From an uncultured Flavobacteriaceae bacterium (GTDB lineage: Bacteria > Bacteroidota > Bacteroidia > Flavobacteriales > Flavobacteriaceae): a DNA stretch of 64,000 bases. Shown one piece after another: positions 46,607 to 61,700 of the stretch. Position 1 is the first letter of the stretch. The number at the start of each line of letters is the position of its first letter. Location of the stretch: NCBI GenBank assembly GCA_947494565.1, contig CANLVG010000003.1, positions 1-64,000 of the forward strand. Reading direction: 5' to 3'. The position numbers were made by a program, and so were the translations under genes. The notes beneath the pieces are model-generated. The model was not told the origin of the DNA. It saw nothing but the letters and a program-made list of their open reading frames with translations, and did not search any database.

Positions 46607-47683
46607 TTAGGCAGGCAAATAGATCACCCCGCTAGAGGAATCCCTTTTTGCACCGGTTACCGATTTCAAAACATTGATTTCCTTTTCGGCACGTAAGGCG
46701 CCCATAAGGGCAAAAACAAGTGCTTCCTTGAATTCGATAATTTCCCTTTCGGGTACAATGACTTCCGTGTGCCCCATGAGTTTTTTACTTAGGACCTCAA
46801 TTAAAAAATGGTTCAAGGCTCCTCCTCCCGTAACGAATAAGGTATTCTGATCCTTGGTGCTATTCAGTTTAATCTGTTGTGCCACTTTTTCGCAAATATG
46901 ATGCACAGAGGTATGTAATAGGTTTTCGGTAGTATCGTCACATGCTTCCACAATGGGAACCACCTCTTCAACGAACCATTCATAGCCGATGGATTTCGGA
47001 TGCGGTAATAAATAATATCGCAATGCATTTAACTTCGTGAGCATCGCTTCGTTAATATGGCCGGAGCGTGCCAATGCTCCTTCATCGTCATAATCGAGAT
47101 CGATTTTTCTGGTGATATAATTCAGGATCATATTCGCCAACCCGATATCATAGGCAATACGTTTGCCTTTTTGCACCAGCGATATATTACTGATCCCACC
47201 AAGGTTCAGACAGAAATCGTATTCTTCGAAAAATAGTTGATCACCGATAGGAACTAGAGGGGCACCCTGACCTCCTAGGGCCACGTCATTGGTCCTGAAA
47301 TCACAGATAACTTTGTGACCGCAAGCGTTGGCCAAGTGCTGCCCCGAACCGATTTGGAATGTTAGCCCTTTTTCCGGTCGGTGGTGGGTGGTGTGTCCAT
47401 GGCTTGCAATGTACTCCGGATCCAATTTTTCGGCTTCAATGAACTGCTTGACCTGTTCCCCCAGCCAGGTTCCATAAGTATTATGGAATTGCAACAGGTC
47501 TTCCGCTTTCAAGTAGATCGAATCTTTCAACTCGGTCTGCATGGCACTCGAATAGGCGATGCTTTTTGATTTAATGATTTCAAAGGACCAATTTCCTTTT
47601 GTGTTGCCAATATGACAATAACAAAGATCGAGACCATCCAAAGAGGTGCCCGACATGACGCCCAAAATTTTATGTTGCTTCAT
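46607..47683 (-). CDS. anmK: Anhydro-N-acetylmuramic acid kinase
   Basis: A 358-residue kinase that opens and phosphorylates 1,6-anhydroMurNAc to MurNAc-6-phosphate. GVMSGTSLDGLDLCY is the ATP/substrate start. HGHTTHHRPEKGLTFQIGSG, DFRTNDVALGGQGAPLVPIGD and LFVTGGGALNHFL are all present. It overlaps the methyltransferase stop by 4 bases. It is the end of the leftward peptidoglycan-recycling set and feeds MurQ. Confidence 0.95.
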   Translation of the reverse strand: MKQHKILGVMSGTSLDGLDLCYCHIGNTKGNWSFEIIKSKSIAYSSAMQTELKDSIYLKAEDLLQFHNTYGTWLGEQVKQFIEAEKLDPEYIASHGHTTHHRPEKGLTFQIGSGQHLANACGHKVICDFRTNDVALGGQGAPLVPIGDQLFFEEYDFCLNLGGISNISLVQKGKRIAYDIGLANMILNYITRKIDLDYDDEGALARSGHINEAMLTKLNALRYYLLPHPKSIGYEWFVEEVVPIVEACDDTTENLLHTSVHHICEKVAQQIKLNSTKDQNTLFVTGGGALNHFLIEVLSKKLMGHTEVIVPEREIIEFKEALVFALMGALRAEKEINVLKSVTGAKRDSSSGVIYLPA

Positions 47684-48348
47684 AGCTTGTATTGCAATAT
47701 GAAAATCACCGAGAGTGGTGTATTTTCGTTTGTTCGCGTTTCCTTTATTTTTATGAGCTCTAGTCCTGATTCGGAAAAAACGACGCTCCAGTCTTCAAAT
47801 GTTCTGGCAAACCATTTATGCCCATTGGTGAAATTGCCCGGTAACCCTTCCCAGGCGTTTGCTATCCACTGACTTTTATACCCCAGTTTCCGGTCTAGAA
47901 GGAAAAAGGGATGTATGGTCTGTATGACCAAATAGCCCTTAGAGGTGACCGACTTTCTGAGGTTCTTCAACAAGAGGTCCATACCCTCTTGTTGATAAAG
48001 GCAAAAATTGAATATTACGGCCTCAAATGGACTTTCGGGTATTTCTTCTCCCTGACTGATTTCGTCATAGGACATTTGGTAATAGGTCTCAGGTCCCTTC
48101 GTGCGTGCGTGCTCGATTAATTTTAAGGTCGCATCGACCCCGACGGATTTCTTGCCGATTAGGGTCATACTTCTTGTAAGCCAACCTTCCCCACATCCGC
48201 AATCCAGGATCGTAGTGCTGGGCAATTGAGAAAGTAATTCTATGATGGCGCTATTAGTAACGATTCGAGATGGTATTTCCTCCGAATCGATAATCTTAAT
48301 CCATTCGTTAGCGTTTTCATCCCATGACTTTAATACTTTTTTTTCCAT
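47680..48348 (-). CDS. Class I SAM-dependent methyltransferase
   Basis: A 222-residue methyltransferase. Motif I is TILDCGCGEGWLTRSM near 49-64, the acidic end of strand two is GVDATLKL, and AVIFNFCLYQQEGMDLLLKNL is the motif IV/V region. The substrate is unknown. It sits between anmK and the GH3 gene with tight spacing, so it is co-transcribed with peptidoglycan-recycling genes without a known role there. The ATG at 48348 is used because the longer frame starts with TTG. Confidence 0.85.
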   Translation of the reverse strand: MEKKVLKSWDENANEWIKIIDSEEIPSRIVTNSAIIELLSQLPSTTILDCGCGEGWLTRSMTLIGKKSVGVDATLKLIEHARTKGPETYYQMSYDEISQGEEIPESPFEAVIFNFCLYQQEGMDLLLKNLRKSVTSKGYLVIQTIHPFFLLDRKLGYKSQWIANAWEGLPGNFTNGHKWFARTFEDWSVVFSESGLELIKIKETRTNENTPLSVIFILQYKL

Positions 48349-48359
48349 CAGGCCCTTCC

Positions 48360-49919
48360 TCAAAAGATAGATACCGGGAGTTTTCCCTCAGCGGATAGTT
48401 TTCCTAAAAAATGCTCGGTCGCCGCGTCTTGGAACTCGGTAAAATCTTGATAGACCACTACGACCGCGGTTGCTTTTTCATACGATAGATGTTGCAACAT
48501 ATAAGGATTCCCGAAAAGGTACACGACGACATTTTTCGTCTGGATCAGTTCATTGATAAAGTCAATTTCCTCTTTGATGAAACCGAACCGATTCGCAGGT
48601 TTTACTTGCGGAGGTGTGAGCAATACCAAAATATCGGTTTCTTCCGCTACTTGCGATCGCATTTGTCGTATTTCTGACGGAAGGTCTTGCAACTTCGGCT
48701 GTGAGGCTGATCTTTTCAGGGTTAGTGTACAGAAATCGGTAGCCCTGAATTGTGCAATTGCACTTTCGCTTCCCCATAAAAGGGTCAGGCTCCTTTCGGC
48801 CAAAGTTTGATTCAATTGCTTGGGTTCTGTAAGTCTCGGGGTCTTCGAAACATCCCTCTCAATGGCTTTCTCCTTTAAAGCCCAAACGCGCTTGAAGCTT
48901 TCCTCAATCTGTTCGGAAGAAGCCTTTTGGAGAATGGTGGTTATACCTTCGGAGACGTTTTCCGCGAAACATAGCACATCGTTTCCGGCATCAAAAGCCA
49001 ACCATTCGAGTTGTCCTTTTTCCGAATACTCCTTTGATACGGCATGCATATTCAAAGCGTCTGATATGACGACTCCTTGGTATCCCATATCGTTTCGCAA
49101 AAGGTCTTTGATAATTGCGGGTGAAATACTTGAAGAAGTGGTTTCGCCATTGGCCAAAGAAGGCACGGATAAATGTCCGACCATCACCGAGTCTACCCCT
49201 TTATCTATGATTTGCTGAAATGGATACAATTCGTTCGCCGTGAGTTCCGTTCTAGGTTTTTCAACTAAAGGAAGCCCCAAATGCGAATCCGTGGCTGTAT
49301 CACCGTGTCCTGGAAAGTGCTTTATGCTAGTTAGAATGCCCTCACTCTCAGCACCCTTTATGAAGGCGAGTGCCTTTTCGGCAACTTTCAATTTGTCGGC
49401 TCCGAAAGACCGATATCCGATGACGGGATTGTTCGGATTGCTGTTCACATCGACACAGGGAGCCAAATTCCAATGTATTCCGGCGGCCTTGCAGTCTTTT
49501 GCAATATTTTTTCCCACTTGAAAAATCAGGTCATTGTTACCTTGAATGGCCCCTAGGGTTAATGCATAGGGGTATTGGGGAGTGTTTTCGATACGCATGG
49601 CCAAACCCCATTCGGCATCTATGGCAATGAGTAAAGGATATTTTGAAGCGTTTTGGTAACGTTCAATGAGTTTTTTGAGGGTCTCGAAACTAGCATCGTT
49701 GAAGACGACCTCTTTTTTTCCTTCATAATTTGTTGCCGCACTGGCCCTACTGTGAAAAAAGCAAAGCGAACCGATACCTTTTGTACGTATCAAATGCTCC
49801 AATTGTTCGATCTCCGCTTCTGAGTCATTGATAAAGGCCGCCGGCATAAACAATTGCCCTACCTTTTCGGCTCGGGAGAGTAGGCTATTGGCGGTTTGAT
49901 AATCTGGGACTTTGTTCAT
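48360..49919 (-). CDS. GH3-family beta-N-acetylhexosaminidase, NagZ-like
   Basis: A 519-residue cytosolic GH3 enzyme; no signal peptide. The catalytic His-Asp loop typical of NagZ is present in IKHFPGHGDTATDSHLGLP (near 200-218), and the nucleophile Asp lies in GVVISDALNMHAV near 285. A C-terminal GH3 domain (about 370-519) makes it longer than E. coli NagZ. It probably removes GlcNAc from imported anhydromuropeptides. The ATG at 49919 replaces an upstream TTG. Its neighbours are the AmpG-like permease and AnmK. Confidence 0.9.
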   Translation of the reverse strand: MNKVPDYQTANSLLSRAEKVGQLFMPAAFINDSEAEIEQLEHLIRTKGIGSLCFFHSRASAATNYEGKKEVVFNDASFETLKKLIERYQNASKYPLLIAIDAEWGLAMRIENTPQYPYALTLGAIQGNNDLIFQVGKNIAKDCKAAGIHWNLAPCVDVNSNPNNPVIGYRSFGADKLKVAEKALAFIKGAESEGILTSIKHFPGHGDTATDSHLGLPLVEKPRTELTANELYPFQQIIDKGVDSVMVGHLSVPSLANGETTSSSISPAIIKDLLRNDMGYQGVVISDALNMHAVSKEYSEKGQLEWLAFDAGNDVLCFAENVSEGITTILQKASSEQIEESFKRVWALKEKAIERDVSKTPRLTEPKQLNQTLAERSLTLLWGSESAIAQFRATDFCTLTLKRSASQPKLQDLPSEIRQMRSQVAEETDILVLLTPPQVKPANRFGFIKEEIDFINELIQTKNVVVYLFGNPYMLQHLSYEKATAVVVVYQDFTEFQDAATEHFLGKLSAEGKLPVSIF

Positions 49920-49926
49920 ATTTAGG

Positions 49927-51189
49927 TTATGTTTTTGACTTTCCAAAATCAGCTGGGTAATCTAAGTATTTCAACAAAACAAAAGCGGGCAATGCGGCCA
50001 GGACTACCCAAATAAAGAAACCATCGTAGCCAAGCCACTCTTGCATATAGCCGCTGATGAGTCCGGGCAACATCATTCCCAAGGCCATAAATCCTGTTGC
50101 TAAGGCATAATGCGAGGTTTTGGAAGCTCCTTCGGCGATGTAGATTAGGTAGACCATAAAGCCTGCGATTCCGAAACCATAGCCAAATTGTTCCACAATA
50201 ACCGTTCCTGTGACGGCATAGATATTTGTCGTTTTGGTAATAGCCAGTAGGGCATAGAGGGCATTGGGCGCATTTAAGGAAATAAGCATGGGAAGCATCC
50301 ATTTTTTTAGGCCTTGCCGCGATATGAGAATTCCCCCTAGGATTCCGCCAATCGTGAGAAAAATAACTCCGATGGTTCCATAAATGGTACCAACTTCCGA
50401 GGTGCTGTAACCCAAGCCTCCTTCCGAGGTGGGGTCCAATAGAAATGGAGAGGCCATTTTTACCAATTGGGACTCCCCAAGTCTAAAAAACAATATAAAT
50501 GCCAAGGCCATACCCATGCCCGACTTCTTGAAGAATGTAGAAAAGACTTCCAAAAATCCTTTTGGCCTTTCTAGTGTAATCGCTTGTGAACTCTCAAATT
50601 TGGGGGCAACGAAAAAATTGGATATGGTCAAGATCAACATTAACAAAGCGGCACTAATCATGGTGTAGGACCAGGCTTTGGTATTGTCACCGTAATGCTC
50701 TTCCAATAAACCGGCCAAAACTACAAGGAGCCCTTGTCCTGTTACATTTGCCAATTTGTAAAAAACGCTCCTCAGCCCAACGAAAAAGGACTGTCGGTCC
50801 TCGGTAAGGCCGATCATGTAATAGCCATCCGTAGCAATATCATTGGTCGCGGAAGCAAAGGCTACCATCCAAAAACAGGCTAAACTAGTGACAAAAAAGA
50901 TGTTCGTGGGCAGCGTCAGCCCAATAGCCAAAAGGGCTATGGAGGCTAATAATTGCATCCCTAAAAACCAATTTCGTTTGGTGCTTTTTAAGTCTACGAA
51001 GGGACTCCATAAGGGTTTGATGACCCAGGGAATATATAGAAAACTTGTGTATAGCCCTATATCCGCATTGCTGACACCTAGTCTTTTGTACATAATGACG
51101 GAGACGGTTACGACTAAGGCATAAGGTAATCCTTGGGCAAAATAAAGAGTGGGTACCCAAGCCCAGGCCCATTTATTCTTTTGGATCAT
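49927..51189 (-). CDS. AmpG-like muropeptide permease (MFS)
   Basis: A 420-residue 12-segment major facilitator. The opening WAWVPTLYFAQGLPYALVVTVSVIMYKRLGVSNADIG is AmpG-like (in two parts). Family motifs WVIKPLWSPFVDL and ATNDIATDGYYMI follow. AmpG carries GlcNAc-anhydroMurNAc peptides into the cytosol. It lies between the GHL10 gene (17-base overlap) and the GH3 gene. Confidence 0.92.
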   Translation of the reverse strand: MIQKNKWAWAWVPTLYFAQGLPYALVVTVSVIMYKRLGVSNADIGLYTSFLYIPWVIKPLWSPFVDLKSTKRNWFLGMQLLASIALLAIGLTLPTNIFFVTSLACFWMVAFASATNDIATDGYYMIGLTEDRQSFFVGLRSVFYKLANVTGQGLLVVLAGLLEEHYGDNTKAWSYTMISAALLMLILTISNFFVAPKFESSQAITLERPKGFLEVFSTFFKKSGMGMALAFILFFRLGESQLVKMASPFLLDPTSEGGLGYSTSEVGTIYGTIGVIFLTIGGILGGILISRQGLKKWMLPMLISLNAPNALYALLAITKTTNIYAVTGTVIVEQFGYGFGIAGFMVYLIYIAEGASKTSHYALATGFMALGMMLPGLISGYMQEWLGYDGFFIWVVLAALPAFVLLKYLDYPADFGKSKT

Positions 51190-52726
51190 TTGAATCGGTT
51201 TGTTTTAAATGTATGATTTTCGGCTCACTTTCCCGACCATTTTTATCCATAAATATAATAGCTATCCGTTTTTTGCCCTTCAGGAGATCGGAAGGTATCC
51301 GTATATGATCTTTGTTTTTGACAAATGACCGTGTCAACAACTTCTTTCGAACATAGTGGTCTTTCTTTACTTTTTGGCAGGTGTAGATGGTGGCATAATG
51401 GACCTGTTCTAAATGATCAAATTCAAGTAAGGTATGTTCTTTTTGATTTTGTATTGATTTCAACGCTGTCTTTTGCTCTTTGACCACTCTTGTTTTCTGT
51501 AGCTGAGGTGGTAAGGCTTTCTTTCTATAGAATTTCCTTTTGAGATGTTTAACTACATCTTTTGAATTGGTCATCAGACTTTTTGCACTAAAGAACACAT
51601 TGCCGTTCACCTCGTCAGTATTTCGAGCGAGATGTATTTGATCGGGAAGTTCTTTCTTTTTGTTCCAAGCAGTATCGCTATTGTTCCTGATTTTATAAGG
51701 TCCGTTGCCGATGTAGAGCAGGGTATTGGTTGAATACTGTGACCACCAATTCACGATTTTTCGGTGTGAGGCTACTGGAAGTTCCATACTCCAATAGACC
51801 TGCGGAACAATATAGTCAAGCCATCCTTGTTCCATCCAAAGTAGGGGATCGGCATAAAGATTATCGAAGGTGGTCTGTCCCGCTTGCGTATCGGAACCTT
51901 TGGGGTCGGTCGATTGGTTTTTCCATACTCCGAACGGACTAACCCCAAACTGTACCCAAGGTTTCCGCGCTTTTATGGTCGCGTGGCTCTTCTTGATCAA
52001 TGAATCGATATTGCTACGGCGCCAATCGCCGAGATCTTGATTCGGTAGGCTGCAATTGTAGTAGGTAATCGAATCGTTAAATACCTCGTCCTTGATAGTA
52101 TAAGGATAAAAGTAGTCGTCAAAATGAACGGCGTCGATATCATAAATTGATACGAGCTCATCGATAACCGATACCATACGTTCCTGTACTTGGGGAAGTC
52201 CTGGATCATAGTAATATTTTTTACCGTATTTCAACATCCATTCCGGGTGTTGGTTGAAATCATGGGCGGTACTTAAGATATCGGTTTTGAGGTCGAAGGT
52301 GGCACGGTACGGATTGAGCCAAGCATGAAATTCCATTCCTCTATCATGCGTTTCGTCAATCATCCACTGCAGCAGGTTTTCTTGAGTATCGGGGGTCTTT
52401 CCTTCTTTTCCGGTCAAAAATCGTGACCAAGGAGCATAATCCGAAGTATAAAAGGCGTCTCCTGCCGTTCTCACTTGAACGATTGCTGCGTTAAAATTGA
52501 GGTCCTGATAAAAATTGAGAATGGTACGGTAGTCGGCTTTCTTTTTTTCGATGGCGTCCGTGCCTTTTTTTGGCCAATCGATATTGACTACTGTCGCCAC
52601 CCAGAAGCCACGGAATTCCCTTTCGGGCTGTGGGACGGGTTTCCATAAGGCGCAGGAGGCGAAACTCAAAAAGGATAGCACTAACAGCCCTTTCTTTACT
52701 TGGCCAATGTTGATTCTACGTCTCAT
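51173..52726 (-). CDS. GHL10 (DUF187) family glycosidase-like lipoprotein
   Basis: A 517-residue protein with a lipoprotein-type signal (KKGLLVLSFLSFASC) and a GHL10/DUF187 TIM-barrel domain beginning REFRGFWVATVVNIDWP. Also visible are HAWLNPYRATF, YDIDAVHFDDYFYPY and FGVSPFGVWKN. The Asp pair in VHFDDYF is a candidate catalytic site. A Lys-rich C-terminal region (about 400-517) looks like a beta domain. The frame starts 60 codons upstream inside the nitrilase gene; the ATG at 52726 begins the signal peptide and is used. Relatives act on unusual glycosidic bonds; here the cluster suggests a peptidoglycan-derived substrate. Confidence 0.88.
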   Translation of the reverse strand: MRRRINIGQVKKGLLVLSFLSFASCALWKPVPQPEREFRGFWVATVVNIDWPKKGTDAIEKKKADYRTILNFYQDLNFNAAIVQVRTAGDAFYTSDYAPWSRFLTGKEGKTPDTQENLLQWMIDETHDRGMEFHAWLNPYRATFDLKTDILSTAHDFNQHPEWMLKYGKKYYYDPGLPQVQERMVSVIDELVSIYDIDAVHFDDYFYPYTIKDEVFNDSITYYNCSLPNQDLGDWRRSNIDSLIKKSHATIKARKPWVQFGVSPFGVWKNQSTDPKGSDTQAGQTTFDNLYADPLLWMEQGWLDYIVPQVYWSMELPVASHRKIVNWWSQYSTNTLLYIGNGPYKIRNNSDTAWNKKKELPDQIHLARNTDEVNGNVFFSAKSLMTNSKDVVKHLKRKFYRKKALPPQLQKTRVVKEQKTALKSIQNQKEHTLLEFDHLEQVHYATIYTCQKVKKDHYVRKKLLTRSFVKNKDHIRIPSDLLKGKKRIAIIFMDKNGRESEPKIIHLKQTDSNDPKE

Positions 52727-53657
52727 TTGACATCCAAACCGGTTGAAGACTTGGTTGGTGTTCTTGCCCCAGAATGGCTTTGTACAATTCAGGTCTTCTC
52801 GCATTTTTGTATCTCCATCCGCCTGATAAGGGTATTTTGTCTTTCGTAAGTTTTGCAATAGTGATTTCATCTTCAAAACTTCTAATTTCCGATAAAATTT
52901 CGCCATATGGGTCGATAATCATCGAATTGCCATTTTTCAAATGCTCCCCATCATAGCCGATAGGGTTCATAAATGCGTAGTATACCCCATTATCATAAGC
53001 TCGTGCCGGTAACCAGCGCATCAACCATCTTCTTCCTTTAGGGCCATCGAACTCCAAACGCAATGACACGGGATCAATTTCACGGTTTTGCCATAGGTTG
53101 TCATCCACATAACCTCTTCCGGGCATGGAGGAGGGGGTGCATCCCGTTACATGGGGAGCAAAGATGATTTCGGCTCCGAGAAGGGTGGTCGCACGCACAT
53201 TTTCGACGATGTTGTTGTCATAACAGATTAAGATGCCACACTTCCAACCCAAAAGATCGAAGACCACATAATCATCACCGGCGCTCATATGGGGGTTGAT
53301 AAACGGATGTAGTTTCCGGTATTTCGCAAGTAGTCCGTCTTTGGTCACACAGACATAGGTGTTAAAAATCTTGTCATTTTCCAATTCAACCAGGCCTGCT
53401 AGTATGGGAATGTCATAAGTTTTCGAAATAGCGATTAATTGTTGACAACTCGTCCCATAGGGTACTTTTTCGGCCAGATCGTGAATTTGGGAATAGGAGA
53501 GATCCTTGGTAAAGGTATAGGCGGTAACCGCCATCTCATGAAAACTGATGACATCGGCCCCTGCCAATTTTGACTTCTTTGTTAAGTTTTCAATTACCGA
53601 TAAGTTATAAGCGGTATCCCCATCTTTTGGGCTAAACTGCGCAACAGCTAGGTTCAT
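52716..53657 (-). CDS. Nitrilase-family carbon-nitrogen hydrolase
   Basis: A 313-residue cytosolic hydrolase. The Glu-Lys-Cys triad is visible: VISFHEMAVTAYTF (Glu about 41), KYRKLHPF (Lys about 115) and GILICYDNNIVENVRA (Cys about 149). Family members hydrolyse amides or nitriles. In this operon an amidase acting on muropeptides or N-acyl sugars is possible but not shown. It overlaps the GHL10 start by 11 bases and is followed upstream by a terminator before nagB. Confidence 0.88.
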   Translation of the reverse strand: MNLAVAQFSPKDGDTAYNLSVIENLTKKSKLAGADVISFHEMAVTAYTFTKDLSYSQIHDLAEKVPYGTSCQQLIAISKTYDIPILAGLVELENDKIFNTYVCVTKDGLLAKYRKLHPFINPHMSAGDDYVVFDLLGWKCGILICYDNNIVENVRATTLLGAEIIFAPHVTGCTPSSMPGRGYVDDNLWQNREIDPVSLRLEFDGPKGRRWLMRWLPARAYDNGVYYAFMNPIGYDGEHLKNGNSMIIDPYGEILSEIRSFEDEITIAKLTKDKIPLSGGWRYKNARRPELYKAILGQEHQPSLQPVWMSNET

Positions 53658-53727: not shown

Positions 53728-55677
53728 TTAATCGAATTTGTGTCGCACGAACGCTTCCATAGCGGCATAGTCGGAAAGTCCCAATGCGCGATACCTGGCC
53801 GCAGTGTCTTTGTTGCGTTCTTCGGCGCGCATCCAGAATTCCCTCGAGTCGTCACCTTGGAACATCACACCATCTTTTTGTGATTGATGTGCAAAAATGG
53901 CGTTCCTTTTCTTCAGCACTTGACTTGGGCTCATCGGTACTGCCATTTCGATTTCGTTGACATCCCATTCGTGCCATGCCCCGCGATACAACCACAACCA
54001 GCAATCATCCATAAAGAGCTCTGATTTCAGGCGTTTCATTGCGGCGAAAACAGCATCGAGACATACTTTATGTGTGCCATGTGGGTCAGCTAGATCCCCT
54101 GCGGCATATACTTGATGGGGCTGTACTTCGGTAATCATGTCCATAACGATCTGGATGTCCGCTTCCGAAAGGTTATTTTTCTTAATGGTTCCCGTTTCAT
54201 AGAAGGGGAGGTCCAAGAAGTGTACATTTTCATCCGGAAGTCCGAGGTATCTTGTGGCAGCAAACGATTCGCCTCTTCTGATATTTCCTTTGAGGCGTCT
54301 TACCTCAAGGGTGTCAAAGCTACTTTCTTTCTTGTTTTTTATGGCATCGATGATCGTTTCGGCTTCCTCAGAAGGACTGATATCCCTTGAAATTTCCGCA
54401 TACCTTAACGCATCGGTATCCGAAACCGCGATATTTCCAGAAGTTTGGTACGCAATGTGTACCTCGTGGCCTTGTTCGACCAATCTGTCGAATGTTCCCC
54501 CCATGGAAATCACGTCGTCATCAGGATGAGGACTAAAGATAATGACCTTCTTTTTGGCGGGTTCGGCTCGTTCTGGTCTACTCGTATCATCGGCGTTGGG
54601 TTTACCACCCGGCCATCCCGTAATCGTATGTTGTAACCTATTGAACATTTTGATATTCAGGTCATAGGAGTCTTGGGCTGCCAATAAACCTGACATGCCA
54701 TTATCATTATAATCCTTATCGGTAAGGCTAAGTATCGATTTGCCGGTTTCACCACACAACCACACTATGGCCTTTGCCGTCAGGCTCTCGGTCCATTCCA
54801 ATGATTCGTCAACGAGCCAAGGTGTCTTGTTTCGGGTCAGCTCTGTTCCTGCACCGGTGTCCAATACAAACGTACAGTTTTTATGACCTTGTAAATAGGT
54901 GGCGGGTACTTGAGAAGAAACTACGCCCTCCACGGTTTTTTTGATGATATCCGCTTTGTTTTGTCCCCAACCTAATAGTACGATCCGTTTGGCTTTCATA
55001 ACGGTAGCGATTCCCATGGTAATGGCTTTTCTGGGAACATTATCGATACCCAAAAATGCTGGGGCCGCATCCACACGTGTGATATGGTCCAAGGTGATTA
55101 CACGGGTTCCGGAGTTATAGTGGGAACCTGGTTCATTAAAGCCGACATGTCCGGTACGACCGATACCGAGTAGTTGAAAATCAAGTCCACCAAACTGCTT
55201 GATGGCCCTTTCATAGGCCAGACAGTAATCAATGACAAATTCACTTGCGACGGTTCCATCCGGAATATGGATATTCTCTCGCGGAATATCGATGTGATTG
55301 AACAAGTGTTCGTGCATGAAGTACCAATAGCTCTGACGATTGTCGGAATCCATCGGAAGGTATTCGTCGAGATTGAAGGTGACGACATTCGAGAAGCTGA
55401 GTCCTTCTTCTTTATGCATCCTTACCAATTCCTCATAGACCCGAATCGGTGATGAACCGGTAGCTAAGCCCAACACACAAGTTTTGTTGGCTTCTTGCTT
55501 TTTTCTGATCAAGGCAGCGATTTCTTGGGCCACTTTGATCGAAGCTTCATTGGAATCATCAAAAATTACATTGTGGATTTTTTCAAATCGAGTTTCCTCA
55601 AATTGTCCTACAGGTTTGAATGCGATATTCTTTCCTGGTTTTTCCCCTTTTGGTTTCATTGTTAAAGTTGCTATCAT
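53728..55677 (-). CDS. NagB-like glucosamine-6-phosphate deaminase fused to PIG-L deacetylase
   Basis: A 649-residue two-domain protein. Residues about 30-330 are NagB-like (GLATGSSPIRVYEELV, TFNLDEYLPM, GIGRTGHVGFNEPGSHY). NagB converts glucosamine-6-P to fructose-6-P and ammonia. In E. coli NagB the loop reads GNDGH with catalytic Asp141; here it is GRTGH, so that Asp is Thr, while the His and Glu of the site remain. Residues about 375-649 are a PIG-L/LmbE zinc deacetylase (IIFSPHPDDDVISMGG, DPHGTHKVC). This could deacetylate GlcNAc-6-P and so replace NagA; that is inference. The gene is divergent from deoR and closed by a terminator. Confidence 0.92.
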   Translation of the reverse strand: MIATLTMKPKGEKPGKNIAFKPVGQFEETRFEKIHNVIFDDSNEASIKVAQEIAALIRKKQEANKTCVLGLATGSSPIRVYEELVRMHKEEGLSFSNVVTFNLDEYLPMDSDNRQSYWYFMHEHLFNHIDIPRENIHIPDGTVASEFVIDYCLAYERAIKQFGGLDFQLLGIGRTGHVGFNEPGSHYNSGTRVITLDHITRVDAAPAFLGIDNVPRKAITMGIATVMKAKRIVLLGWGQNKADIIKKTVEGVVSSQVPATYLQGHKNCTFVLDTGAGTELTRNKTPWLVDESLEWTESLTAKAIVWLCGETGKSILSLTDKDYNDNGMSGLLAAQDSYDLNIKMFNRLQHTITGWPGGKPNADDTSRPERAEPAKKKVIIFSPHPDDDVISMGGTFDRLVEQGHEVHIAYQTSGNIAVSDTDALRYAEISRDISPSEEAETIIDAIKNKKESSFDTLEVRRLKGNIRRGESFAATRYLGLPDENVHFLDLPFYETGTIKKNNLSEADIQIVMDMITEVQPHQVYAAGDLADPHGTHKVCLDAVFAAMKRLKSELFMDDCWLWLYRGAWHEWDVNEIEMAVPMSPSQVLKKRNAIFAHQSQKDGVMFQGDDSREFWMRAEERNKDTAARYRALGLSDYAAMEAFVRHKFD

Positions 55678-55851: not shown

Positions 55852-56601
55852 ATGCTTAAAGAAGAACGACAACAGACCATTTTGAACGAAGTGGAGTTGC
55901 ATAACCGTATTTTGCTCACCGATATCGCCGAAACGCTTGATGTATCCATTGATACCGTTCGTAGGGATGTGAAAGAACTAGACGCAGAGCAAAAGTTACG
56001 CAAGGTCCACGGAGGAGCCGTCTCCCTTGGTTTCACGACGAACAGTACGCGAAACACGAATGTGTATGCCCTGAATGAAAAATTGATCATTGCTGAAAAA
56101 GCGAGCAGCCTCTTGAAGAGTGGGGGCGTAATTTTTATAGATGGGGGCACGACTTGTTTAGAGTTGGCGCGTATGATTCCAGATCATCTTGAAATCACCT
56201 GTTTCACCCTGAGTTTGCCCGTGGCCATGGAGCTTACCACAAAAGGGAATGTTACCGTGATCTTTGTGGGAGGTCAAATTTCCAAGGATTCCCAAATCTC
56301 CATCGGCGCCAACGCCATTCACAATTTGTCCGAAATCAAGGTCGATTATAGTTTTATAGGTACAGGATATGTCGATTCAACCTATGGTCTAACCGAATTC
56401 GATTGGGATATCGTACAGTTAAAAAAAGCAGTGATACAAGCTGCCAAGAAAACGGTATTGTTGTGCATTTCAGAAAAACTGAATTCGCAACATCGGTACA
56501 AGACCTGTGATATCAATGCTATCAATACCATGATTACCGAACTGCTCCCTGAAAACCAACTTTTAAACTCCTTTAGAAACCACGATATTCGAATTCTATA
56601 A
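55852..56601 (+). CDS. DeoR-family transcriptional regulator
   Basis: A 249-residue DeoR-type repressor. The N-terminal HTH (about 1-57) reads LKEERQQTILNEVE, ILLTDIAETLDVSIDTVRRDV and KLRKVHGGAV. The C-terminal sugar-phosphate sensor domain (about 75-240) includes FIDGGTTCLELARM and IGTGYVDSTYGLTEFD. Such regulators sense phosphosugars; MurNAc-6-P or GlcN-6-P fit this locus. It is 3 bases before murQ and divergent from nagB, so it likely controls both directions. Confidence 0.92.
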   Translation: MLKEERQQTILNEVELHNRILLTDIAETLDVSIDTVRRDVKELDAEQKLRKVHGGAVSLGFTTNSTRNTNVYALNEKLIIAEKASSLLKSGGVIFIDGGTTCLELARMIPDHLEITCFTLSLPVAMELTTKGNVTVIFVGGQISKDSQISIGANAIHNLSEIKVDYSFIGTGYVDSTYGLTEFDWDIVQLKKAVIQAAKKTVLLCISEKLNSQHRYKTCDINAINTMITELLPENQLLNSFRNHDIRIL

Positions 56602-56604
56602 CCT

Positions 56605-57417
56605 ATGAGCTATACTAAAATTACCGAAACCCCGTCAAACCATGACAATTTAGAACAGTTGGACACGGCGGTCTTACTTCAAAAAATGAACGAGGAAGAT
56701 AAAAAAGTCGCCGATGCCGTGGCCCTTGCCATACCTCAAATTACGGAGTTGGTCGATGCCTTGGCCGAACGTTTTGAAAAAGGAGGGAGGCTTTTCTACA
56801 TTGGCGCCGGTACCAGCGGTCGTTTGGGTATTCTTGACGCCTCTGAAATTCCACCGACCTATGGCATGCCCCATGAACGGGTAGTAGGCCTAATTGCTGG
56901 TGGTGATATCGCAATTCGAAAATCCGTTGAGCATGCAGAAGATGATAGCCAACAAGCTTGGTCGGATCTTATGGTCCATGAGATGACCGATTTGGATGTC
57001 GTTGTTGGTATTGCCGCCTCGGGTACCACGCCCTATGTCTTGGGTGGTATTGCCGATGCGAAGAAAAATGGACTTTTAACAGCCGGTATTACGAATAATC
57101 CTGGTTCTCCTCTGGCGGAGGTAGTGGATATCCCAATAGAAATGAACGTCGGGCCTGAGTTCGTTACAGGAAGTACACGTATGAAAAGCGGTACTTCGCA
57201 AAAACTAGCACTTAATATGATTTCGACGGCCTTGATGATCAGAATCGGCCGAGTAAAGGGAAATAAAATGGTGCATATGCAGTTGAGCAACAATAAATTG
57301 GTCGATCGTGGGGTACGCTATGTAGCCGAAGGTTTGGGTATTTCGTATGATGAGGCGGAACAGTTACTTCAAAAGCACGGCTCGGTTAAAGAGGCTATTG
57401 CCGCCGGAAAATCCTAA
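56605..57417 (+). CDS. murQ: N-acetylmuramic acid 6-phosphate etherase
   Basis: A 270-residue SIS-domain etherase that cleaves the lactyl ether of MurNAc-6-P, giving GlcNAc-6-P and D-lactate. Motifs: YIGAGTSGRLGILDASEIPPTYGMP (substrate loop, in two parts), VEHAEDDSQQ with the catalytic Glu region, and GSTRMKSGTSQKLALNMIST. The length is that of the short Bacteroidetes form. It directly follows the DeoR gene. GlcNAc-6-P made here would be handled by the NagB-PIG-L protein. Confidence 0.96.
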   Translation: MSYTKITETPSNHDNLEQLDTAVLLQKMNEEDKKVADAVALAIPQITELVDALAERFEKGGRLFYIGAGTSGRLGILDASEIPPTYGMPHERVVGLIAGGDIAIRKSVEHAEDDSQQAWSDLMVHEMTDLDVVVGIAASGTTPYVLGGIADAKKNGLLTAGITNNPGSPLAEVVDIPIEMNVGPEFVTGSTRMKSGTSQKLALNMISTALMIRIGRVKGNKMVHMQLSNNKLVDRGVRYVAEGLGISYDEAEQLLQKHGSVKEAIAAGKS

Positions 57418-58747: not shown

Positions 58748-61700
58748 ATGCTCCCTATAAAAAAAAGGCATCTACTGTATGCGCTATCCCTAGCCATACT
58801 TTCAGTAGTTTTTACAACAGCCCTTGCCAATGAGAAGCTACATAGTTTTATTGTGGACGTGGCACTGGCAATCGAGGAAACGCTTCCTGTTTTAGACGAT
58901 ACGGATAAAACGGAAATTCCAGAACGATCTTCCCGCCCGGCGGAGAAACCTTTTTCAAGCACCAGGGCTTTATCTTTTATGCCCCCGACGACCGTACTAG
59001 GTGCGGATACAGAATCAAATTGTGGTGTAGACGGAAGTTTAGTGGCTGAAGTCTTTGTCTGTGGTGACTACGATTTCAAAGACTTGTCCATCGCTGGAAA
59101 TCCATCTGGAGCCATTTGGGAACAATACGTTCCTACTGGGGCCTGCGCACTTGACTTTGGAGAAGTATGTCCTTCATTTTTGGTGGCCGGTTCCAATTGT
59201 ACCAATAGCCCTTCAAACTGGACTCAAATCGCTACAGGTGCTAACTACACTATCGACCCGGCTAGTATTTCGGTTTCCTCTGGAACGGAATACCGCGTGC
59301 GTGTTGGAGGAAACACCTACTATATCAAGGCGACGAAAAGTTCATTTGATTATAGCTACGAAGTTAATGATGTGGTTTGTGGTACTTTAGGCAGTATACG
59401 GATCACCTCACTTTCTCCTGCCTACGAACTGAGAATCGCTGCGGGAACCGGTGGTTTTGGACCATGGCAAGATTCAAAAGAGTTCACTGATTTGGCCGTA
59501 GGTGATTATACGGTTGAAGTGCGACTTAAAAATACGCCTAATGCCTGTGAATACCCTTATCCTCCATTTACTATTGCCGATAGGGCCCTCGATATTGAGG
59601 TGACTGTTACCGATGCCAATTGTCCTGGTCAAAATGGCGATATCTTCGTGCAGCTTAACGGTTCAGAAGTTCCGGGACCTTATAGTTATACCTTAATTGA
59701 CGCTGGTACGAACCAACCGATTGTTTTTACACCGGGTATTGCTCCTGATTCGTATTTATTTTCTTCGGTAAGTCCGGGAACCTATATTGTTAAGGTAGAA
59801 ACCCCTGAATGTCAAGATGATTTTGCCAATGGCATCTTGGCTCCCACACAGGATGAGGACACCAATGGTGATCCTATTGTAATAGGTCAGGGACTGCAGC
59901 CCATTGTCGCCGATGCCAACCTAAACGGACAGAGTTTTGGTTGTGCGAACATTACCAGTATCGATATTGATATTACCACAACGGGAGGAACACCGCCTTA
60001 TACCTATACCGTCGTTTGGGGAACAGGTAGTGGTGTTTCACCAGCACCTTACACAGATACACAAACCTCACAATTTGCAGTAACTACTTCAGATACATAT
60101 ACCTTTACGATTACCGATGCTAACGGATGTAGTCCTGATCAGCCCTTATCGGTTTATATTGATGACTTACCACCACCTGTAATCGATCCGGAACCTATTT
60201 TGGGAACCTGTACCAATGGAGGAGGTAAAATTGATTTCCAAGTCGTAAGCAATCCTGGTTATGATTTGGAATTCCGTGTTTCCTCGGGAGACCCTTGGGT
60301 GAACTTCACTATTGTAAACGTACCCGATGGTACCTATAATGATATGTGGGTCCGCTATACGCAGGGTGCCTTTTCTTGTGAGGTCCAAATTTCGGACACT
60401 GTGGTGGTTACGTCAGACTCTAGTATTACCGGTTCAGCTTCGGTTACGGCCGACTTTACCTGTACGGCTGGCGGAGGTACCATTACCTTTGATCCGGGCA
60501 TGACCGCTGGTGGTACCGGAACGGGATATGAATACAGTATAGATAATGTGAATTATCAGGTGGGAACCGTCTTTTCAGGTTTAGCTCCGGGAACGTATAC
60601 CCCCTTTATTAGGGATGACTCTGATTGCCGCCAACCCATTGGTGCACCTTTGGTCATTAATGACCCGGCGACCCCTACCGATATTACCTTCGCACAAGGG
60701 AGTATCAATTGCGCAACAGGTACCAGCGAAGTCACCGTTACCGTCGTAGGTGGCGCAGCAGTTTCTACCTATGAAATCGTTGCACCCGCAGGGGCGGTTA
60801 CCGCTCCTCAGGCGAGTAATGTTTTTCCAAATTTGGTACTCGATACAAGACATGATTTCATAGTCACCGATGTGAATGGATGTACGCATCCGGCCAGTTT
60901 TGTAACTGGAGGAATCAGTACCATTCGTGCCCGTATTAAGGCTGGTGGGGATACCAATGTGTGTACAGGTGCCACCGATGGTTTCGGGGCCTTCATCATT
61001 GATGGGTTCAACCCGGATACCCCCGGCGCCGATTATACTTATTCTATTTCAGGTACGGCCTTGAGCGGTTCTAGTAGTGATCTTGAAATTCCAGTAACAA
61101 ATTTGGGTGCAGGTACTTACACGATTACCGTAACCGATGCGGATACCAATTGTACCGATACGGCCGATTTAGTGATTTCCGGACCTCCTTCACCTTTATC
61201 CGTAACACCAACCGTGACTCCAATGTCTTGTACCAATGGCAACGTAGGCACGGTTAGGGCAAATAAAATAGGCGGTTTTTCGGGACAACCACAATATCAA
61301 TTGACTTACCCTGGAGGAACGGTCATTCCGTGGAAAAATGGTCGCTTTTTCGGAGGCTTGAATGAAACAGGAACATATACCTTGGAAGTACGTGATGCTG
61401 AAGGCTGTATTGCTAGTACCACTTTTGCTTTAGTTTCCTTAGGTGCTCCCACAATTACGGAGGGAACCATAAACAGATGCTTTACCTCTGCCAGTTTTGC
61501 ATCAATTGAGGTGTTTTCCGCAGTAGGTACCGGTAATCTGAGCGATCACCGTTTTCGAATCGTCGGACAAGGATTACAACCTTTGGGAACCCCTGGTACG
61601 CATACTTTTACCAATCTTGTACCGGGTACCTATACGATAGAAGTAGAGAATATTGTAACCAATTGTACGGCGACATTACCTCCAATTGTTATTGAGCCCG

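What the first reader, a model, noticed from the sequence alone, without database searches (positions are those of the whole stretch)
53728..55677. NagB-PIG-L fusion lacking the canonical NagB catalytic Asp
The active-site loop reads GRTGHVGFNEP where E. coli NagB has GNDGHIAFNEP, so Asp141 (ring opening) is Thr, while His143 and Glu148 equivalents remain. The fused zinc deacetylase domain keeps its HPDDD and HGTH motifs. The protein may do deacetylation plus a modified deamination or isomerisation, and could replace the separate NagA not seen here.
Basis: partly seen in the sequence, partly recalled or inferred. Interest (0 to 1): 0.65.

Follow-up and report, generated by a model that had tools for sequence, protein, structure and literature searches.

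The report
Probable two-step amino-sugar fusion enzyme
A flavobacterium-like bacterium carries one protein that probably does two consecutive steps in breaking down a recycled cell-wall sugar, with an unrelated zinc enzyme standing in for the usual deacetylase NagA; the odd residue that was flagged is normal for this protein family.

Summary
Confirmed: window 53728-55677 (minus strand) encodes 649 aa, a NagB half fused to a PIG-L zinc-deacetylase half, with Thr at the E. coli Asp141 position. This is a catalogued family (NF002557/PRK02122), over cut-off in 100 of 247 sampled genomes of the phylum. The Thr is no lesion: the position is T 139, S 24, N 12 of 178 homologues, and Asn in 10 of 30 stand-alone NagBs. 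Other acid-base residues and the PIG-L metal motif are kept.

Stronger is the NagA-replacement idea. The genome has no NagA and no other NagB over cut-off. The gene heads an apparent operon ending in AnmK, divergent from DeoR-MurQ; MurQ makes GlcNAc-6-P. Fusion genomes may have NagA (24 of 100) or stand-alone NagB (18 of 100), never both. Two lineages lost the NagB-half catalytic Asp; those genomes have stand-alone NagB, no NagA and an intact PIG-L half. One genome encodes the halves as adjacent separate genes. Best reading: GlcNAc-6-P to GlcN-6-P to Fru-6-P on one polypeptide.

Against: no assay; 61 of 79 fusion-less MurQ+ genomes also lack NagA; the NagB lid lost Arg172; independent evolutionary events are few.

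The parts
53728..55677 (-). NagB-PIG-L fusion gene, 649 aa (NF002557 / PRK02122 family)
   Evidence: ORF; NF002557 1055.7 bits against cut-off 384
54835..55569 (-). NagB half, about residues 37-281; the TIGR00502 nagB model matches 40-281 at 256.6 bits, cut-off 236.9
   Evidence: model matches 2bkv with TM 0.97 (target length), rmsd 1.1
55129..55161 (-). ring-opening loop GRTGHVGFNEP (residues 173-183); Thr175 at 55153-55155 is at the Asp141 position
55366..55368 (-). Asp104 = E. coli Asp72 (enolisation base; role recalled)
   Evidence: D in 172 of 178 homologues
55060..55071 (-). altered active-site lid: Asp203, Ala204, Ala205, Pro206 where E. coli has Ala169, Asn170, Ser171, Arg172
54559..54834 (-). 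linker region, residues 282-373
   Evidence: no Pfam match; absent from the split pair in L257
53731..54558 (-). PIG-L half, residues 374-649
   Evidence: 3we7 diacetylchitobiose deacetylase TM 0.65
54514..54528 (-). HPDDD motif (residues 384-388): metal ligands His384 and Asp387, catalytic Asp386 (roles recalled)
   Evidence: H384, D386, D387, D388 each in 177 of 178, the exception being an extraction artefact
54070..54087 (-). DPHGTH motif (residues 531-536), His536 presumed third metal ligand (recalled)
   Evidence: H536 in 177 of 178; His533 is Asn in 2 of 177
55852..56601 (+). DeoR-family regulator, divergent from the fusion
   Evidence: near the fusion in 50 of 80 named relatives
56605..57417 (+). 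MurQ, MurNAc-6-P etherase, source of GlcNAc-6-P
   Evidence: TIGR00274 306 bits, cut-off 302; 50 of 80 named relatives
52716..53657 (-). carbon-nitrogen hydrolase, second gene of the apparent operon; rarely found at this place in relatives
   Evidence: found near the fusion in 1 of 80 named relatives
51173..52906 (-). GHL10 glycoside-hydrolase-like protein; the listed start overlaps the gene upstream, the true start is probably further in
   Evidence: 43 of 80
49927..51189 (-). AmpG-type MFS transporter
   Evidence: TIGR00901 181.6 bits, below its cut-off of 350; 46 of 80
48360..49946 (-). GH3, NagZ-like
   Evidence: PF00933; NF003740 151.9 bits, below its cut-off of 207; 46 of 80
47680..48363 (-). 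methyltransferase
   Evidence: 3 of 80
46607..47683 (-). AnmK, anhydro-MurNAc kinase, last gene of the apparent operon
   Evidence: NF007144 509.1 bits, cut-off 436; 44 of 80

Best explanation
The protein is a two-step amino-sugar enzyme. Its PIG-L half removes the acetyl group from GlcNAc-6-phosphate with a metal-bound water, doing the job of NagA, an unrelated amidohydrolase that this genome lacks. Its NagB half then isomerises and deaminates the resulting GlcN-6-phosphate to fructose-6-phosphate plus ammonia, using Asp104, His177 and Glu182; Thr175 sits where Asp or Asn sits in other NagBs. In this organism the substrate comes mainly from recycled cell wall: AmpG-type and NagZ-like proteins, then AnmK and MurQ deliver GlcNAc-6-P. 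Shown: domain content, kept residues, gene neighbourhood, NagA absence, the occurrence pattern, the split pair. Inferred: both reactions, the 6-phosphate on the substrate, the order of steps, operon co-transcription.
For: NagB half passes the nagB equivalog cut-off and its model matches a deaminase whose entry title reports kinetics (2bkv, TM 0.97). PIG-L metal residues intact in 177 of 178; the exception is a 48-aa extraction artefact. Own genome: best NagA-model hit 34 bits over 52 profile positions, while the same search is over cut-off in 7 of 14 control genomes; no other NagB over cut-off. Neighbours in 80 named loci (best 80 of 552 relatives): DeoR 50, MurQ 50, AmpG 46, NagZ-like 46, AnmK 44. 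In 98 phylum loci AnmK 8 and MurQ 6, against 0.34 expected for one copy in a 4-Mb genome, and GH20 20. Fusion genomes: MurQ 99 of 100 and AnmK 99 of 100, against 79 and 73 of 147 without it. NagA (over 150 bits) 24, stand-alone NagB 18, both 0 of 100; NagA plus stand-alone NagB occurs in 14 of 147 fusion-less genomes. Rechecked, the 24 NagA-bearing fusion genomes show no stand-alone NagB over cut-off; one short frame in G099 is a fusion cut by a contig end. The 5 fusions that lost Asp104 are all in genomes with stand-alone NagB and no NagA, PIG-L residues intact, in 2 events on the tree. Genome G219 encodes the halves as adjacent genes 23 bp apart, no linker, with no NagA over cut-off. In 247 genomes strong matches to the PIG-L half lie inside fusions except in G219 and three contig-start pieces (two in G099, one in G246); the next listed match is 48 bits.
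Against: No enzymology here, and none seen in the held papers. 61 of 79 fusion-less MurQ+ genomes have no NagA either, so lack of NagA does not by itself demand a substitute. Phylogeny-aware tests rest on 2 decay events and are not significant, and the NagA-versus-NagB comparison is uninformative once relatedness is considered. Arg172, which I recall as a phosphate ligand, is kept in only 7 of 178, and Asp203 is gained. The best-listed solved PIG-L relatives are diacetylchitobiose deacetylases, not GlcNAc-6-P deacetylases. In 24 of 100 genomes NagA, or a relative of it, is also present. Recurrent neighbours in the phylum sample also include genes with no evident link to amino sugars, and 77 of 98 loci have none of the tested cluster genes. 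The kinase that could feed GlcNAc into the pathway is only weakly NagK-like. In F. johnsoniae deletion of nagB Fjoh_4557 had no effect on chitin growth; the authors suggest redundancy (PMC5127042, passages).
Confidence: 0.72

Rival explanations
1. The NagB half has changed substrate or reaction (for example a sugar without the 6-phosphate, or isomerisation without ammonia release), because the lid lost Arg172 and Asn170 and gained Asp203, and Asp141 became Thr or Ser.
For: Arg172 invariant in 30 of 30 stand-alone NagBs and 3 solved ones, but R in only 7 of 178 fusions; Asn170 is Ala in 173 of 177. The galactosamine-6-phosphate isomerase paralogue of the same genome (NF007291 284.9 bits, cut-off 271) also lacks the Arg in the HMMER alignment, so the lid may relate to substrate.
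Against: Asp104, His177, Glu182, Lys241 and the TGSSP loop are kept. The 24 NagA-bearing fusion genomes have no other NagB over cut-off, so the NagB half is their only candidate GlcN-6-P deaminase of this model. In the window's own locus the neighbours supply GlcNAc-6-P.
Confidence: 0.15
2. The PIG-L half deacetylates another molecule (free GlcNAc, chitobiose, a muropeptide sugar), and GlcNAc-6-P is handled by an unknown route as in fusion-less MurQ+ genomes.
For: Best-listed solved PIG-L folds are diacetylchitobiose deacetylases. 61 of 79 MurQ+ genomes without the fusion also lack NagA. GH20 genes lie within 5 kb of the fusion in 20 of 98 loci.
Against: Fusion and split pair tie it to a GlcN-6-P deaminase; in decayed-NagB lineages the PIG-L half persists beside a stand-alone NagB with no NagA.
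Confidence: 0.18
3. The NagB half is a catalytically dead sensor or scaffold and only the PIG-L half works.
For: Thr at Asp141; decayed NagB halves do exist in 5 of 178.
Against: In the other members the acid-base residues are conserved, and decay is seen only where a stand-alone NagB exists.
Confidence: 0.05

Closest known systems
NF002557 / PRK02122 'glucosamine-6-phosphate deaminase-like protein'
   Same: Same full-length architecture, 1055.7 bits against cut-off 384; the window protein is an ordinary member.
   Different: The family name speaks only of deaminase likeness; the role of the PIG-L half is proposed here.
Monomeric NagB (2bkv) and S. mutans NagB (2ri1, with GlcN6P)
   Same: 40-41% identity to 2bkv and a near-identical fold; both solved proteins also lack Asp at position 141 (Asn).
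   Different: No fusion; Arg172 and Asn170 kept.
E. coli NagB (allosteric hexamer)
   Same: Asp72, His143, Glu148, Lys208 equivalents.
   Different: Asp141 is Thr, allosteric Lys160 is Ile (role recalled), Arg172 is Pro.
NagA (TIGR00221) GlcNAc-6-P deacetylase
   Same: Proposed reaction.
   Different: Different protein family; no NagA over cut-off in this genome.
PIG-L/LmbE deacetylases (archaeal diacetylchitobiose deacetylase 3we7, BshB)
   Same: Fold and HPDD / His metal motif.
   Different: Fused to NagB; proposed substrate carries a 6-phosphate; no solved homologue named for that specificity was listed.
Peptidoglycan-recycling clusters (AmpG, NagZ, AnmK, MurQ)
   Same: AnmK and MurQ over cut-off, AmpG-type and NagZ-like genes in one locus.
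   Different: NagA and NagB appear to be replaced by one fused gene at the head of the apparent operon.

Membership tests
NF002557 / PRK02122 | Whole-protein score over the curated cut-off of 384 bits | tested here: met
   1055.7 bits, profile 14-652 of 653
GlcN-6-P deaminase NagB (TIGR00502) | Equivalog score over 236.9 bits | tested here: met
   256.6 bits
GlcN-6-P deaminase NagB (TIGR00502) | Asp72, His143, Glu148, Lys208 | tested here: met
   D104, H177, E182, K241
GlcN-6-P deaminase NagB (TIGR00502) | Asp or Asn at position 141 | tested here: not met
   Thr; D 20 / N 10 in 30 stand-alone NagBs
GlcN-6-P deaminase NagB (TIGR00502) | Lid Asn170 and Arg172 | tested here: not met
   Ala204 and Pro206
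GlcN-6-P deaminase NagB (TIGR00502) | GlcN-6-P to Fru-6-P plus ammonia | not testable with these tools
   needs an assay
PIG-L/LmbE deacetylase | PF02585 over gathering score, HPDD motif and distal His | tested here: met
   70.3 bits against 28.2; motifs
PIG-L/LmbE deacetylase | Metal-dependent deacetylation of a GlcNAc moiety | not testable with these tools
   needs an assay
NagA (TIGR00221) | Homology to the NagA amidohydrolase | tested here: not met
   The deacetylase half matches PIG-L; TIGR00221 was not among the NCBIfam hits of the fusion

The most novel reading that the evidence does not exclude
Much of Bacteroidota deacetylates GlcNAc-6-phosphate not with NagA but with an unrelated PIG-L zinc enzyme, physically fused to a NagB whose lid has been rebuilt (Arg172 lost, Asp203 paired with Arg174), so that two steps run on one polypeptide, perhaps with direct hand-over of GlcN-6-P. 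The split pair in G219 would be an unfused form of the same partnership.
Probability: 0.55. Interest if true: 0.65.

Novelty: new variant of a known kind. Interest (0 to 1): 0.55.

Why it matters
If right, it fills the NagA gap in amino-sugar and peptidoglycan recycling pathways of many Bacteroidota (76 of 100 fusion genomes in the sample have no NagA hit above 150 bits), corrects a database name that credits only one of two activities, and gives a second, unrelated solution to GlcNAc-6-P deacetylation. It is directly testable with one purified protein or one complementation strain.

Tried and rejected
Rejected: Thr175 as a lesion, since Asn stands there in solved deaminases and T, S or N in the family.

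Rejected: two 'NagB-only' copies in genome G099 as real truncations. Both end exactly at contig ends.

Rejected: locus L197 as a decayed member. My extraction gave a 48-aa wrong frame; it is dropped from the decay count and.

Rejected: a simple fusion-versus-NagA exclusion. NagA occurs in 24 of 100 fusion genomes and 18 of 147 others; only the joint pattern with stand-alone NagB is informative. Six of the 24 are under the NagA cut-off, and several NagA hits lie next to stand-alone NagB-superfamily genes that score under the NagB cut-off, so some are probably GalNAc-type (inference, not tested).

Weak: the covariation Arg/Lys174 with Asp/Glu203. It holds for all 178 rows counted (168 with a basic residue have Asp or Glu, 10 without have Ala) but reflects only 2 changes on the tree, and it is not a rule outside the family: 2bkv has the Arg without the Asp. 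I first read it as Thr175 pairing with Asp203; rows with Asn175, Arg174 and Asp203 point to residue 174 instead. No coordinates were available to measure distances.

Led nowhere: literature on residue Arg172 (its role is recalled); papers on a NagB-PIG-L fusion (searches listed none that I recognised as a functional study; judged from listings, with passages of nine papers opened; subscription papers not held); promoter and terminator scan not above chance.

Limits: stand-alone NagB was taken from the rows listed (down to about 252 bits), plus G065, so hits of 237-252 bits may be missed outside the 24 genomes rechecked; G219 at E 7e-73 is one such. One stand-alone NagB match used for the decay argument (G215) has a TAG inside the matched stretch. 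G246 counts as a fusion genome although its copy lies in pieces on two contigs. The split-pair genome G219 is counted as fusion-less in all tallies. Adjacency was measured on the best-scoring copy only, in 98 of the 99 other fusion genomes (G246 left out); 6 of these 98 loci, and 3 of the 28 named loci with no cluster gene, have under 3 kb on one side. Gene lists for searches were copied by hand; the AnmK split (99 and 73) was counted by eye. Adjacency expectation assumes one copy and 4-Mb genomes.

Full report
What is there. Window 53728-55677, minus strand, encodes 649 aa. Pfam gives Glucosamine_iso at residues 41-267 and PIG-L at 380-546. NCBIfam places the whole protein in NF002557 (PRK02122, 'glucosamine-6-phosphate deaminase-like protein') at 1055.7 bits against a cut-off of 384, and the N-terminal half also passes the nagB equivalog model (256.6 against 236.9). 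An AlphaFold2 model from a 41-sequence alignment has mean pLDDT 89.4 and pTM 0.81. Its N half matches 2bkv, a monomeric GlcN-6-P deaminase (the organism, B. subtilis, is recalled), at TM 0.97 and rmsd 1.1; its C half matches archaeal diacetylchitobiose deacetylase 3we7 at TM 0.65. The nearest named relatives are Maribacter, Kriegella and Zobellia; the best, 91%, is an uncultured Flavobacteriaceae.

The flagged residue. Thr175 does stand at E. coli Asp141. It is not unusual enough to imply a broken enzyme: 2bkv has Asn there, S. mutans NagB has Asn (its structure with GlcN6P is listed), and 30 stand-alone NagBs of the phylum have D 20, N 10. Over 178 fusion copies (80 named loci and 98 phylum-sample loci) the position is T 139, S 24, N 12, V 2, one gap. 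Asp104, His177, Glu182 and Lys241 (Asp72, His143, Glu148, Lys208) are kept in this protein. In the phylum sample NagA accompanies 6 of 12 Asn copies, 18 of 59 Thr copies and 0 of 24 Ser copies.

A bigger change that was not flagged lies in the active-site lid. Asn170 and Arg172 are invariant in 30 of 30 stand-alone NagBs and the three solved sequences used. In the fusions Asn170 is Ala in 173 and Asn in 4 of 177, and Arg172 is mostly Ser (82) or Pro (65); Arg remains in 7 of 178. I recall Arg172 as a phosphate ligand but found no passage to confirm it. An Asp or Glu at 203 goes with a basic residue at 174 in 168 rows, and Ala203 goes with its absence in 10 rows, but only two changes on the tree underlie this, and 2bkv has the Arg without the Asp. 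The allosteric Lys160 (role recalled) is Ile in 107 of 110, so activation by GlcNAc-6-P as in E. coli is unlikely.

Surroundings. The fusion is the first of seven same-strand genes: CN hydrolase, GHL10, AmpG-type MFS, NagZ-like GH3, methyltransferase and AnmK follow. A DeoR regulator and MurQ run the other way from a 174-bp gap. In 80 named relatives (the best 80 of 552) DeoR and MurQ lie near the fusion in 50, AmpG and NagZ-like in 46, AnmK in 44, GHL10 in 43, none of the tested genes in 28. In 98 loci sampled across the phylum (best copy per genome) the cluster is mostly absent (77 with none), but AnmK is within 7 kb in 8 and MurQ in 6, against 0.34 expected by chance. Other recurrent neighbours within 5 kb fit amino-sugar or glycan use: GH20 hexosaminidases (20), SusC-type (22) and SusD-like (12) proteins, a GntR/LacI-type regulator (20), a BadF-like kinase (6; Pfam score under the gathering score). 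Others have no evident link: a sodium-solute symporter (10), a GMC oxidoreductase (9), a PD40-repeat protein (8), a TatD DNase (7), MgtE (6).

Genome level. The window's genome (5.39 Mb, 99.99% complete) has no NagA over cut-off: the best TIGR00221 hit is 34 bits over 52 profile positions. Its only other NagB-superfamily matches are a galactosamine-6-phosphate isomerase gene (130 bits to nagB; NF007291 284.9 bits, cut-off 271) and one of 33.7 bits that I read as 6-phosphogluconolactonase-like. A kinase just beyond the window resembles the BadF-like neighbour but is only weakly NagK-like (27.5 bits, cut-off 370). In 247 phylum genomes the fusion is over cut-off in 100. MurQ is present in 99 of these 100 against 79 of 147 others, AnmK in 99 of 100 against 73 of 147 (hand counts). 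NagA above 150 bits is in 24 of the 100 (18 over the curated cut-off), stand-alone NagB in 18, both in none, neither in 58; the NagA plus stand-alone NagB pair occurs in 14 of the 147 fusion-less genomes. A recheck of the 24 NagA-bearing fusion genomes found no stand-alone NagB over cut-off; the one short frame, in G099, is cut by a contig end. Uncorrected probabilities are 0.004 for the absence of 'both' and 0.0005 for none of the 14 pairs falling among fusion genomes. With relatedness considered, the NagA/NagB comparison is uninformative.

Two natural experiments. First, five fusion copies (G230, G238, G167, G207, G215) have lost Asp104. All five genomes have a stand-alone NagB and no NagA, and all five keep the PIG-L residues. 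The tree of the C-terminal part shows two losses; the sign test cannot reach significance with two. Second, genome G219 encodes a 263-aa NagB-type protein (47% identical to the N half) and, 23 bp downstream, a 286-aa PIG-L protein (38% to the C half); the sequence shows a proper stop and no linker. It has no NagA over cut-off. Apart from this genome and contig-start pieces in G099 (two) and G246 (one), the strong matches to the PIG-L half in 247 genomes are inside fusions; the next listed is 48 bits.

Reading. The simplest account is a bifunctional GlcNAc-6-P deacetylase / GlcN-6-P deaminase in which PIG-L replaces NagA. What is shown is co-occurrence, linkage, residue retention and the split pair; the two reactions are inferred. 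Against it stand the 61 of 79 MurQ-bearing fusion-less genomes with no NagA either (one of them is G219), which shows that other routes exist or that the NagA model misses some enzymes, and the lost lid Arg.

Literature. Passages of PMC5127042 say that the F. johnsoniae ChiUL NagB, Fjoh_4557, is predicted to convert GlcN-6-P to Fru-6-P, could not be expressed in E. coli, had no deletion phenotype on chitin, that three additional nagB-like genes exist, and that NagA is Fjoh_3974. I did not establish that Fjoh_4557 itself is a fusion. A passage of PMC7426924 repeats the expression failure. A passage of PMC4324048 reports NagA and NagB in Flaviramulus ichthyoenteri, a flavobacterium. Passages of PMC5583593 list NagB1 and NagB2 as non-orthologous deaminases and show no PIG-L replacement of NagA. 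Passages of PMC5790795 and PMC7670621 describe MurQ-derived GlcNAc-6-P in Tannerella; the words NagA and deacetylase do not occur in them. A passage of PMC3764172 has the family's name once, in a table of Porphyromonas genes. Passages of PMC9812318 and PMC4008608 concern NagB structure and allostery. The listings showed no functional study of the fusion in the held library.

Noticed in passing
L257:8175-9850 (genome G219): Unfused, adjacent NagB-type and PIG-L genes, 23 bp apart: a natural split form of the fusion.
   Followed up: yes
L171, L186, L248, L249, L250: Fusion proteins whose NagB half has lost the Asp72 equivalent while the PIG-L half is intact.
   Followed up: yes
window 52716-53657: Carbon-nitrogen hydrolase gene between the fusion and GHL10; seen near the fusion in 1 of 80 named relatives.
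   Followed up: partly
window 56605-57417: MurQ here is 270 aa, and listed matches from the same family and class stop near profile position 253-277 of 291, while listed matches from other parts of the phylum mostly reach 289-291: a possible loss of the C-terminal lid.
   Followed up: no
window 58748-64000: Open frame of at least 1751 codons running off the window, repetitive and secreted-looking; probably a large surface adhesin (guess from the translation).
   Followed up: no
L252:8819-9535 (own genome, contig C1): Galactosamine-6-phosphate isomerase gene beside GH4, sodium-solute symporter and beta-lactamase-fold genes, with a sulfatase gene nearby, although no NagA-model hit over cut-off exists in the genome.
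   Followed up: partly
genomes G042, G069, G077, G081, G159, G175: MurQ and AnmK present but neither fusion nor NagA over cut-off: the fate of their GlcNAc-6-P is unexplained.
   Followed up: no
fusion ORFs in G030, G147, G195, G199, G231: Longer frames (727-867 aa); the match to the PIG-L half breaks near residue 188 of 284, which suggests a local insertion or divergence.
   Followed up: no
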